DNA of 64,000 bases from a bacterium. GTDB lineage: Archaea; Thermoproteota; Nitrososphaeria; Nitrososphaerales; Gagatemarchaeaceae. The DNA lies in NCBI GenBank assembly GCA_027310575.1, contig DAIDAO010000045.1:1-64000 (forward strand), given 5' to 3'. The translations under genes were made by a program, and so were the position numbers. The notes beneath the pieces were generated by a model, which saw only the letters and a list, made by a program, of their open reading frames with translations, did no database searches and was not told the DNA's origin. The first letter of the stretch is position 1; each line of letters opens with the position of its first letter. Below are positions 33,997-46,143 of the stretch, in pieces.

Positions 33997-35940
33997 CTAC
34001 TTTCTCAGTCGGCCGGCCAGCCCTGTCTTCTCCAGCATCCGGACATACCTCGGGTCTTCGCGGACGCCGTCAAGCTCGCGGTCGATGCCCATCGAGAAGA
34101 CCCCTCTGTCGTGGAGGTCGAAGGCCTTCTCCAGCACCTCGAACCCCTTGTCCTTGTCCCCCATCTTGAAGTAGGCGCAGGCGACGAGGTAGAGACTCAC
34201 CCTGTCCGACGCAGGCGCCGACTCGAGCTCTCGGAGCGCGCTCCTTGCTTCTTCGACCCTTCCTAGGAACACGTCTACGTACGCCCTCGCCATCTTCAGG
34301 CTGACCGGGCTGCAGACGGACCCGTATTTGGCGAGCGCCTCCTCCGCCTCTCGGTACCTTGACGCCCAGAGGCATATCTGAATCAACGTCGGATAGGCAG
34401 GTTCGAAGCTCGGGTCCATCTCGATCACCTTCTTCGCCTGCACCATGGCCTCGTCGTACCTGCCCGCGTAGAAGAGCCCGTCGGCGACGTTCGTGTTGAT
34501 GATTAGTGACAGCGGGCTGAGCTCGAGGGCGCGGGTCACCTCTGCCCAGCCTTCATCGAGCCGCCCCTGCCATCCAAGATAATGGGCGTACCATTGGTGG
34601 GCGGAGGGGTAGCTCGGGTTGAGCTCGATGGCCCTCCTGAACTCGGACCCGGCCCTCTCCCAGTCCCGTTCGTACGCCAGGGCCTCGCCCGCGAGGACAG
34701 CGTGCGCCTCGGCCAGGTCGTCATCGAGCGAGAGCGCCTTCAGGGCGTATTCTTTCGCCTTCGGGTAGAACCCCTCGGGGTCCTCGTAGTTGTTCGCCGC
34801 CATGACATGGTACACCTGGGCAAGGCCCGCGTACCCTAGAGCGAAGGTCGGGTCAAGCCCAATCGCCTCCTGCATGAGCTCCGCGGCCTTCCTCAGGGCC
34901 TCGGGGGTCCGCTTGTTCCAGTAGTACATCCCCTTCAGATACACGTTGTGGGCCCTCGGGTCTGTGCTGGCCCCCCTCCCCATCCGCCTCTTCTCCGACT
35001 CAACGAGCCTGACCTTGAGCGCCTCGGCGACCCTCTCTGCGACCTCGCTCTGGACCGTGAAGACGTCGTCCAGCTGCTTGTCGTAGTTCTGGGCCCATAG
35101 ATGCCCCTCGCTCCTGGCGCTGATCAGCTGGACTGTAATCCTGACCTTGTTCCCCGCCTTCCTCACGCTCCCCTCGATCACGGTCCCCACGTTCAGCTCC
35201 CTTCCAACGTCTGCGATGCGCTTCGGCGCGTTCTTGTACTGCATCACCGAGGTCCTTGCGATCACGGTCAGCTCGCTGACTGCGGACAGGGCCGTGATCA
35301 GCTCCTCGGTCATCCCGTCGGCGAAGTACTCGTCGTTCGGGTCAGGGCTCATGTTCTTCAGTGGGAGGACAGCGATCCTGTGCTCGTCCAGGTCCGCTTC
35401 CTGCTCACGCGTCAAGTCCCAGGGCATCACCACCTTGTAGGCCTCTACCTGAAGCTTGACGTTCTTTAGTGTCTTGGACCCGAGCTTTTCGAGCGGCAGC
35501 TCGACCTTGTTGCTCACATGGTCGTAGACCTGCCCGGAGATGCAGACCCCTCCGGGGTCGGCGAGAGGCTCGATCCTGGACGAGACGTTGACCGCGTCCC
35601 CGAGTATGTCCCCGCCGCTGTGGACGACGTCCCCGACGTGGATCCCGATCCTTATCTGGAGCCGCCTCCCCTCAGGGAGCCCGCTGTTCCTCTCGTGCAT
35701 CGCCTTCTGAATCTCCACGGCGCACCTGACAGCGTCAAGGGCGCTCGACAGCTCGACGAGGAATGCGTCCCCTATCGTCTTGACCTCCTTCCCGCGGTAT
35801 CGCGCGACGATGGGCCGCACCAGCGACCTGTGTTCTTCCAGCAGCTGTAGCATCAACGCCTCGTTCGTCTGGCCGAGCGAAGTGAAGCCGACGACGTCGG
35901 TGAACATTATTGCGGCCAGCCTCCTTTCGCCTTCGGACAA
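33997..35940 (-). CDS. Class III adenylate/guanylate cyclase domain + TolB-like + TPR protein
   Basis: IMFTDVVGFTSLGQ, KEVKTIGDAFLVEL, GDAVNVSSRIEPLADPGGVCIS; then RIAVLPLKNMSPDPNDEYFADGMTEELI and TPR repeats; TTG start. Confidence 0.93.
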   Translation of the reverse strand: MSEGERRLAAIMFTDVVGFTSLGQTNEALMLQLLEEHRSLVRPIVARYRGKEVKTIGDAFLVELSSALDAVRCAVEIQKAMHERNSGLPEGRRLQIRIGIHVGDVVHSGGDILGDAVNVSSRIEPLADPGGVCISGQVYDHVSNKVELPLEKLGSKTLKNVKLQVEAYKVVMPWDLTREQEADLDEHRIAVLPLKNMSPDPNDEYFADGMTEELITALSAVSELTVIARTSVMQYKNAPKRIADVGRELNVGTVIEGSVRKAGNKVRITVQLISARSEGHLWAQNYDKQLDDVFTVQSEVAERVAEALKVRLVESEKRRMGRGASTDPRAHNVYLKGMYYWNKRTPEALRKAAELMQEAIGLDPTFALGYAGLAQVYHVMAANNYEDPEGFYPKAKEYALKALSLDDDLAEAHAVLAGEALAYERDWERAGSEFRRAIELNPSYPSAHQWYAHYLGWQGRLDEGWAEVTRALELSPLSLIINTNVADGLFYAGRYDEAMVQAKKVIEMDPSFEPAYPTLIQICLWASRYREAEEALAKYGSVCSPVSLKMARAYVDVFLGRVEEARSALRELESAPASDRVSLYLVACAYFKMGDKDKGFEVLEKAFDLHDRGVFSMGIDRELDGVREDPRYVRMLEKTGLAGRLRK

Positions 35941-43748: not shown

Positions 43749-43853
43749 ACGTGGCCCGGACACAGGACTCCACCGCCCGACCAGCGTGAGCCTTGGACGC
43801 CAGCAGAAGACAAGACGTGGGGTTTAAATCACTTCAAGATTTCTGGTGCACGA

Positions 43854-44279
43854 ATGGTCGGAGCCCCGGACGCGGCCGCGCTTATCGGCGAAGTCCCCTT
43901 CTTCGCAGGCCTCGATGCGAAGCGGAAGAAGGTCGTCGCTTCTCAGGGCAAGGAACTCTCGTACAACGCTGGGGATCCAATCGTGGAAGCCGGGTCCATG
44001 GGGGTTGGTTTCTACCTGATCCTGGACGGCAAGGTCGAGGTCAGAAAGGGAAAGAGCATCCTGGCCTCTCTCGGCAAAGGGCAGTTCTTCGGAGAGATGT
44101 CGCTCATCGACGAGGAGCCTAGGGCGGCAGATGTAGTGGCGGTGTCGCCGACGAAGTGCTGGGCGCTTTCGTCGTGGTCCTTCGGCGCCTTGGTCAAGTC
44201 GAACCCGGAGGTCGCCCTCACGATGCTCAAAGAACTGGTGAAGAGACTCCGGGCCGCACAGAGCTCCCCGACTTCCTGA
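43854..44279 (+). CDS. Stand-alone cyclic-nucleotide-binding domain (cNBD/Crp-like) protein
   Basis: GDPIVEAGSMGVGFYLILDGKVEV, phosphate-binding cassette FFGEMSLIDEEPRAADVVA; no HTH follows. Confidence 0.9.
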   Translation: MVGAPDAAALIGEVPFFAGLDAKRKKVVASQGKELSYNAGDPIVEAGSMGVGFYLILDGKVEVRKGKSILASLGKGQFFGEMSLIDEEPRAADVVAVSPTKCWALSSWSFGALVKSNPEVALTMLKELVKRLRAAQSSPTS

Positions 44280-44316: not shown

Positions 44317-45105
44317 TTGAAAATAGGACTCAGCACCTGGTCCCTGCTGAGCCTCGACGTCTGCTCTGCTGTCAAGACCATAGGGGATGCGGGGTTCGAA
44401 TACGTGGAACTCTGGGGGGAAGTCCCCCACGCCTATCCGGGGTGGGTGGATAGGCACAAGCTAAGAGAGGCGCTCTCCTCGTACGACATGGTGGTCACGA
44501 TGCACGCGCCATTCACCGATCTCAACCCCGCCACCCCTTTCCAGCCCGTGAAGGGGGCGGTCGAAAAGACCCTGGAAGACTTCGTCAGGCTTGGGGAGTT
44601 CCTTGGGGCGAAGATGGTCACGGTCCACCCGGGGAGCGTCCACAGCGAGAGCCTCGTCCCCTCTTCGGCCGAGAACTCTGTCGCCTCTCTCCGTAAGATG
44701 GCCAGGGCGGCCGGGGGACGATTCTCCATCAACGTAGAGAACCAGGTGAAAGGCAAGTCGAAGTATCACTTCCCCCTTGCCAGCACTGTCGAATCGCTCG
44801 ACCTGATCCTCGCCGAGGTTGAGGCGCTCCGCTTCACCCTCGACACGGGCCATGCCCATGCAAACGGCCAGGACCCTCTCGCTCTGGCCGAGAGGCAATG
44901 GTCGAAGCTGGCTGAGGTCCACCTGAGCGACAACGCCGGCGCCTCCGACGACCATCTCATCCCAGGTGAGGGGACCTCCCGCACCAAGGGGCTCATGGAG
45001 AAGCTAGCAGGCACGGAAACCCTCCTGTGTCTCGAGCTGGACCCCCACAGGTACACCCCCGACCAGGTCCTTCAGGCTTCGGTTTCGTTCAAAAACAGTA
45101 TATAA
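44317..45105 (+). CDS. Sugar phosphate isomerase/epimerase (xylose isomerase-like TIM barrel)
   Basis: KIGLSTWSLLSLD, VHPGSVHSESL, RFTLDTGHAHANGQDPL; TTG start. Confidence 0.85.
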   Translation: MKIGLSTWSLLSLDVCSAVKTIGDAGFEYVELWGEVPHAYPGWVDRHKLREALSSYDMVVTMHAPFTDLNPATPFQPVKGAVEKTLEDFVRLGEFLGAKMVTVHPGSVHSESLVPSSAENSVASLRKMARAAGGRFSINVENQVKGKSKYHFPLASTVESLDLILAEVEALRFTLDTGHAHANGQDPLALAERQWSKLAEVHLSDNAGASDDHLIPGEGTSRTKGLMEKLAGTETLLCLELDPHRYTPDQVLQASVSFKNSI

Positions 45106-45140
45106 TATACGGAGGCATACGTAAGCCAGGGGGGTCGGGC

Positions 45141-45647
45141 TTGAAGACTTCTCTCGTAGCCGCAGTCCTCGTCGTCATCGTGGTAGCAGGGGCTGCAGCG
45201 GTCCTGTTTCTCTCCTCACCGACGGGAAGCCTCGTGGTAGGGGTGAAAGACGCTCCTTCGACGGGAGCCGTCACCCACATCTACCTGACGATGACAGATC
45301 TGACTTTGCAGGGGTCCGGGAATTCCAGCACCACGTACAAGGTGAACGCGACCACGTTCGACCTCCTCGGGCTTACCAACGTGACAAAGTGGCTGGGCAA
45401 GAGCAGCGTGCCTGTGGGCGACTACACCATGGTGAGGTTCACGGTAACGAGCGCCATAGCCACGGTCAGCGGTGCGAACGTGACCCTCAAGGTCCCCAGC
45501 GGAGAGATCAAGGTCCCGATCCACTTCACCATAGCCTCGGGCAAGACCACCACGGTGGTCCTTGACATAACCGCGGACATGACTGCCATCAGCGCAGCGA
45601 ACGAGCTCAGGCCTGTCGTCACGGGCCTGGTCACACCGCCAAGATGA
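45141..45647 (+). CDS. Secreted DUF4382 protein
   Basis: N-terminal TM then GSLVVGVKDAPSTGAVTHIYLTMTDLTLQ...FDLLGL; TTG start. Confidence 0.78.
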   Translation: MKTSLVAAVLVVIVVAGAAAVLFLSSPTGSLVVGVKDAPSTGAVTHIYLTMTDLTLQGSGNSSTTYKVNATTFDLLGLTNVTKWLGKSSVPVGDYTMVRFTVTSAIATVSGANVTLKVPSGEIKVPIHFTIASGKTTTVVLDITADMTAISAANELRPVVTGLVTPPR

Positions 45648-45651
45648 CGAC

Positions 45652-46143
45652 ATGGAGTCCGTCCCAGACGACCTGAAGGAGGTGCTCGCCCCGAACGAGC
45701 AGGTCCAGCTGTACATCAGGCAGAAGATCTACCATCCGAAGATCAACATAGATTCCGTGGTCATCACGAACGAGAGGATAATCCTCAGGCACCCGCACGC
45801 CATGCGGCTGAGGAAGGACTACACAGACTACAACTACCAGGACGTCTCGAACGTCGTCCTCGACAAGGGGATACTCCGCTCGACAGTCAGGTGCACTCTG
45901 AGGCTCGGCGGAGAGCCGCTCGCCCTGGGCGATCTGCCCAACTCCGAAGCGGAGAAGGCCTATGGTCTGATACGGGAGAACCTGGTCAGATACCAGTCCC
46001 CGTTCGCCGCTCCCCAGTCGGGCATACCCCCGTTCCGCCAGACGGCGGCTCCGTCGGCCTTCGCCCCAGGGACCTGCAGCAAGTGCGGCGCCCCTCTCGG
46101 GGCCGGGCAGAAGTACTGCGGCAGCTGCGGCGCCCCTGTCTAG
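45652..46143 (+). CDS. PH-like domain + C-terminal zinc ribbon protein
   Basis: INIDSVVITNERIILRHPHAM..., CSKCGAPLGAGQKYCGSCGAPV. Confidence 0.75.
   Translation: MESVPDDLKEVLAPNEQVQLYIRQKIYHPKINIDSVVITNERIILRHPHAMRLRKDYTDYNYQDVSNVVLDKGILRSTVRCTLRLGGEPLALGDLPNSEAEKAYGLIRENLVRYQSPFAAPQSGIPPFRQTAAPSAFAPGTCSKCGAPLGAGQKYCGSCGAPV

What the first reader, a model, noticed from the sequence alone, without database searches (positions are those of the whole stretch)
43854..44279. Stand-alone cyclic-nucleotide-binding protein as possible receptor for the nearby cyclase
A 141-aa cNBD with an intact-looking phosphate-binding cassette (FGEMSLIDEEPRAADVVA; conserved Glu and Arg) and no DNA-binding or enzymatic domain. 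It lies about 8 kb from a class III cyclase. Together they suggest a complete archaeal cNMP pathway whose output partner is unknown.
Basis: inference. Interest (0 to 1): 0.6.

Follow-up and report, generated by a model that had tools for sequence, protein, structure and literature searches.

The report
Archaeal stand-alone cAMP-receptor domain
A soil-type archaeon carries one small protein built to bind cyclic AMP; across its family this gene comes and goes with enzymes that should make cyclic AMP, and it sits beside a conserved metal-enzyme gene that is its most likely working partner.

Summary
Window 43854-44279 (+) encodes a 141-aa protein that is only a cyclic-nucleotide-binding domain (PF00027, 72.6 bits), the only one in its genome. 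The phosphate-binding Glu81 and Arg90 are invariant in all 48 aligned homologues from its archaeal family. The genome has two class III cyclases. Cyclases of the family keep the full adenylate-cyclase residue set.

Joint absences fall in separate lineages. Ten of 49 cNBD loci lie within 2.5 kb of a cyclase; 1.3 expected. The 8-kb gap in this window is weak evidence alone.

A divergent endonuclease-IV-like TIM barrel (44317-45105) lies next to the cNBD in all 25 readable loci of the genus, and in swapped order in another genus; all nine metal ligands are invariant.

Best reading: a cAMP receptor subunit acting through protein contact, probably on that enzyme. Binding, product and contact are untested. 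Domains known; arrangement new.

The parts
43854..44279 (+). Stand-alone cyclic-nucleotide-binding domain protein, 141 aa
   Evidence: PF00027 72.6 bits; only cNBD in the genome; homologues in 38 of 46 family genomes; AF2 model pLDDT 80, best PDB matches CRP/GlxR/TtCAP and PKA-R
44088..44141 (+). Phosphate-binding cassette, residues 79-96 (FGEMSLIDEEPRAADVVA); Glu81, Arg90
   Evidence: F79, G80, E81, R90 and A96 identical in 48 of 48 family homologues; cNBD-like proteins elsewhere in the phylum have W and K/W at the E and R positions
43823..43829 (+). TATA box of a leaderless promoter (TTTAAAT), within a longer conserved element GTGGGTTTAAATC in most relatives
   Evidence: Same spacing to ATG in nearly all genus loci; only near-match in the window
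44317..45105 (+). AP_endonuc_2 / endonuclease-IV-like TIM barrel, 262 aa, likely co-transcribed partner
   Evidence: PF01261 79.6 bits; follows the cNBD on the same strand in 25 of 25 readable genus loci, precedes it in G310; nine EndoIV-type ligands invariant in 26 of 26 and aligned with the genome's own EndoIV
33997..35940 (-). Class III adenylate cyclase (catalytic domain at 35437-35916) with C-terminal TPR repeats, 647 aa
   Evidence: PF00211 73.1 bits plus TPR families; catalytic set D-K-D-D-N-R intact; best solved relative 3mr7

Best explanation
The protein is a single-domain cAMP receptor. TPR-bearing class III adenylate cyclases (two cyclases in this genome, up to fifteen in relatives) make cAMP; the cNBD binds it through Glu81/Arg90 and passes on a conformational change by touching another protein, since it has no output domain of its own. 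In this genus the likeliest target is the metal-dependent EndoIV-like TIM-barrel enzyme encoded 37 bp downstream, so the pair would act like a regulatory and a catalytic subunit. Shown here: the domains, intact motifs, co-occurrence with cyclases, repeated linkage, strict pairing with the TIM barrel. Inferred: cAMP as ligand, cyclase activity, physical contact, and direction of regulation.
For: Intact PBC, invariant in 48 homologues; closest solved sequences are PKG, PKA-R and CRP cNBDs. Family cyclases all carry D-K-D-D-N-R, the Lys/Asp pair that specifies adenine. cNBD and cyclase co-occur: 35 both, 7 neither, 3 cNBD only, 1 cyclase only; p=1.7e-5, and 0.007 at 85% completeness or more; the one cyclase-only genome (G316) is cut by a contig end inside the TIM gene. 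Joint absences (G304, G301, G315) fall in separate rpoB lineages. Cyclase within 2.5 kb of a cNBD in 10 of 49 loci against 1.3 expected, with the linked cyclases from several branches of the cyclase tree. TIM-cNBD adjacency in 25 of 25 genus loci and in reversed order in G310; the TIM gene is missing in the genus genomes that lack the cNBD, apart from the contig-broken G316.
Against: No binding or enzyme assay. In the window the cyclase is 8 kb away and not in the operon. Other genera of the family have the cNBD without the TIM barrel, so the TIM barrel cannot be the general target. Conserved neighbours can share expression without touching. Most ammonia-oxidising relatives have class III cyclases and no cNBD, so the cyclases do not need it in general. 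Genomes are mostly MAGs, so absences are uncertain, and the linkage statistic ignores shared ancestry.
Confidence: 0.55

Rival explanations
1. Adaptor or buffer: the cNBD binds cAMP but acts on many or other partners (for example the TPR part of the cyclases, or simply as a cAMP sink), and the TIM-barrel neighbour is only co-expressed.
For: Genera g130, g132 and g133 have the cNBD without the TIM barrel, and in g130 and g133 it is often beside a cyclase. Many cyclases per genome but usually one cNBD.
Against: Adjacency of cNBD and TIM barrel is complete in the genus and recurs in swapped order in G310, and absence of the TIM gene tracks absence of the cNBD within the genus.
Confidence: 0.22
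2. Signal-off module: the TIM barrel is itself the cAMP phosphodiesterase and the cNBD is its sensor, so the pair ends the signal rather than carrying it.
For: The nine ligand positions of a trinuclear EndoIV site are all kept, a site that hydrolyses phosphodiesters in EndoIV; CbiR of the same superfamily hydrolyses a small-molecule phosphodiester (PMC7733943). The cell has a separate true EndoIV. A cNBD that switches on a phosphodiesterase is known in Bdellovibrio Bd1971 (PMC8846402).
Against: No member of this superfamily is known to me to cleave cAMP; the superfamily also holds isomerases and epimerases. The TIM barrel is missing from family members that have cyclases.
Confidence: 0.13
3. 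The domain no longer works as a cNMP receptor; it binds another ligand or is a structural module, and co-occurrence with cyclases reflects shared lifestyle or genome size.
For: No binding data; degenerate cNBD-fold proteins exist elsewhere in the phylum; in the window the residue pair after the PBC Arg is AA while most relatives have SA, so ligand preference is not fixed by sequence.
Against: Glu and Arg of the PBC never change in 48 sequences down to about 30% identity; repeated physical linkage to cyclases.
Confidence: 0.1

Closest known systems
cNMP-binding domain family (PF00027): PKA/PKG regulatory domains, CRP/GlxR, SthK and MloK1 channels
   Same: Fold, phosphate-binding cassette with Glu and Arg, PRAA motif as in PKA
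   Different: No kinase, HTH, channel or enzyme attached; 141 aa in all; archaeal
Class III adenylate cyclase with TPR tail (PF00211; solved relative 3mr7)
   Same: All six catalytic positions intact, C-terminal TPRs
   Different: Archaeal; literature says very few archaeal cyclases are class III (PMC8646023); expanded to 15 copies in some relatives
Bd1971 of Bdellovibrio: cNBD that activates an attached phosphodiesterase (PMC8846402)
   Same: cAMP/cGMP sensing by a cNBD proposed to control a phosphodiester-cleaving enzyme
   Different: Here the cNBD and the enzyme are separate genes, the enzyme is a TIM barrel of another superfamily and not an EAL domain, its substrate is unknown, and regulation is not shown
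AP endonuclease 2 superfamily: endonuclease IV, CbiR, MJ1311 (3wqo)
   Same: The linked TIM barrel keeps all nine metal-ligand positions; best solved relative MJ1311
   Different: CbiR model 54 bits against a cut-off of 105 and EndoIV models weaker; shorter loops than EndoIV; the genome has its own EndoIV

Membership tests
cNMP-binding domain (PF00027) | Profile match over the whole domain | tested here: met
   72.6 bits, positions 2-89 of 89
cNMP-binding domain (PF00027) | Phosphate-binding cassette with Glu and Arg | tested here: met
   E81, R90; 48 of 48 homologues
cNMP-binding domain (PF00027) | Binds a cyclic nucleotide | not testable with these tools
   needs ITC or thermal shift
CRP/FNR transcription factors | C-terminal HTH DNA-binding domain | tested here: not met
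   No HTH; protein ends after the C-helix; CRP equivalog 40 bits against a cut-off of 266
Class III nucleotide cyclase (window 33997-35940) | Two metal Asp, adenine-selecting Lys and Asp, transition-state Asn and Arg | tested here: met
   D-K-D-D-N-R
Class III nucleotide cyclase (window 33997-35940) | Makes cAMP | not testable with these tools
   needs enzyme assay
Endonuclease IV (window 44317-45105) | Nine ligands of the trinuclear metal site | tested here: met
   26 of 26, aligned to own EndoIV; ligand identities of EndoIV from general knowledge
Endonuclease IV (window 44317-45105) | Passes the curated EndoIV model | tested here: not met
   TIGR00587 25 bits against a cut-off of 129.65
CbiR (window 44317-45105) | Passes the curated CbiR model | tested here: not met
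   NF041277 54.2 bits against a cut-off of 105

The most novel reading that the evidence does not exclude
A two-gene archaeal cAMP effector: a free-standing cNBD that acts as the regulatory subunit of an EndoIV-like metallo-TIM-barrel enzyme, fed by a many-to-one set of TPR-type class III cyclases. It would be an archaeal cAMP pathway with maker, receptor and target all named.
Probability: 0.3. Interest if true: 0.75.

Novelty: new variant of a known kind. Interest (0 to 1): 0.5.

Why it matters
cAMP has been measured in several archaea for decades, but the cyclases are said to be mostly unknown, few archaeal ones are class III, and the 2021 survey read here names no archaeal cAMP effector protein in the passages I searched (PMC8646023). 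This family offers a compact, testable set: cyclases with intact active sites, in most genomes a single receptor, and a conserved candidate target. If binding is confirmed it would let archaeal cAMP signalling be studied with defined parts.

Tried and rejected
Proximity alone as evidence: rejected, 8 kb is near chance for one genome. CRP-type regulator: rejected, no HTH. TIM barrel as the cell's repair endonuclease: unlikely, a separate EndoIV is on contig C56. Assignment to CbiR: fails the curated cut-off. Family name (GC 64%; same order as the ammonia oxidisers but another family; resembles Gagatemarchaeaceae/UBA183, PMC10640624) is inference, not a result. Known phosphodiesterases: only three generic metallophosphoesterases found, not pursued. 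The AF2 model used 10 bacterial relatives in the alignment, so its closeness to CRP folds is partly a bias of that alignment.

Full report
What is there. The ORF at 43854-44279 (+) is a 141-aa protein that is a cyclic-nucleotide-binding domain and nothing else. Seven ortholog comparisons give dN/dS of about 0.08-0.18, with dS saturated in the distant ones. It has its own promoter: a TATA box whose centre lies 28 nt before the ATG, at the same spacing in nearly all relatives of the genus, so the message is probably leaderless. An AlphaFold2 model (pLDDT 80, cassette region about 62) matches cAMP receptor domains in the PDB.

The receptor motif. Phe79, Gly80, Glu81, Arg90 and Ala96 are identical in all 48 family homologues aligned. 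The two residues after the Arg are AA here, as in PKA, and mostly SA in relatives. Other PF00027 proteins of the phylum that could be aligned have lost the Glu and the Arg. An intact cassette on a stand-alone domain is therefore a mark of this family within the phylum sample.

The maker. The window cyclase (33997-35940, -) and the second cyclase of the genome (contig C8) keep all six catalytic positions, as do all family cyclases that could be aligned (39 rows, a few of them the same gene). The exceptions are nine cyclases from other families of the order, mostly Arg to Lys. The Lys/Asp pair predicts adenylate cyclase, which agrees with a cAMP-type cassette. Product and ligand are not tested.

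Do they go together? In 46 genomes of the family, 35 have both, 7 neither, 3 only the cNBD and 1 only the cyclase; Fisher p=1.7e-5, or 0.007 in genomes at least 85% complete. The cyclase-only genome G316 has a TIM-barrel fragment that starts at a contig end, so its cNBD is probably just missing from the assembly. On an rpoB tree the joint absences G304, G301 and G315 (88-95% complete) fall in separate lineages; G337, also lacking both, has the same rpoB stretch as G322, which has both, and is only 60% complete, so it says little. At phylum level the link is loose: most ammonia oxidisers have cyclases and no cNBD.

Are they near each other? Ten of 49 cNBD loci have a cyclase within 2.5 kb; 1.3 were expected. 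The Poisson figure (1.5e-6) does not correct for ancestry, and G312/G313 share one arrangement. The linked cyclases fall on several branches of the cyclase tree, so linkage arose or was kept more than once. In G318, G332 and G302 the two genes are divergent neighbours; in G344 a cNBD paralogue and a cyclase are 80 nt apart on one strand.

The partner. Immediately downstream lies a TIM barrel of the AP endonuclease 2 superfamily (44317-45105). It follows the cNBD on the same strand in all 25 readable loci of the genus, and in another genus (G310) it sits just upstream instead. A conserved pair in two orders argues for shared function. All nine metal-ligand positions of endonuclease IV are invariant in 26 sequences and line up with the cell's own endonuclease IV, yet the protein fails the curated EndoIV and CbiR models. 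It is probably a metal-dependent hydrolase or isomerase of unknown substrate.

How it works, most likely. Cyclases raise cAMP; the cNBD binds it; lacking an output domain, it must act by contact. The co-encoded TIM barrel is the leading target in this genus, as a regulatory/catalytic subunit pair. Genera without the TIM barrel must use something else, which keeps the adaptor reading alive. The TIM barrel being a cAMP phosphodiesterase is possible but has no direct support.

Novelty. Both domain families are known. The combination (single-domain receptor, many cyclases, EndoIV-like partner, archaeal) is a new variant. Against the literature, archaeal class III cyclases are called few (PMC8646023); nine paper searches did not turn up this arrangement, but the library is partial and that is not proof of absence.

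Noticed in passing
L142:749-1324 and 1404-2759 (genome G344); also L138, L141: cNBD paralogues with an N-terminal rubredoxin-like zinc ribbon; in G344 one is 80 nt upstream of a class III cyclase on the same strand, which looks like an operon.
   Followed up: partly
window 43820-43830; The cNBD promoter element GTGGGTTTAAATC is conserved beyond the TATA box in most relatives; in the complete genome G318 it is the only exact match, which hints at a dedicated regulator.
   Followed up: partly
Phylum sample, (e.g. L028-L034): Ammonia-oxidising relatives carry up to seven class III cyclases (Nitrosopumilaceae-like family f2) but mostly no cNBD, and several have Lys in place of the transition-state Arg; what they make and what reads it is unclear.
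   Followed up: no
(G331, G340: 15 each; G332: 11; G317: 10): Strong copy-number expansion of cyclases, many in long open frames of about 650 codons, in 1.5-2.1 Mb genomes of the genus.
   Followed up: no
L099:4986-9649 and equivalents in about a dozen genomes: In a sister clade the cNBD-TIM pair follows a MoxR-type AAA ATPase operon instead of the MsrB/unknown genes seen in the window clade.
   Followed up: no
L008, L010, L011, L016, L017: cNBD-fold proteins with a degenerate cassette (LGWSSL...) in other families of the phylum, with a shared gene neighbourhood where it was read (L150-L153).
   Followed up: no
window 45027-46143: DUF4382 protein and a bacterial-PH/zinc-ribbon protein downstream of the TIM barrel.
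   Followed up: no
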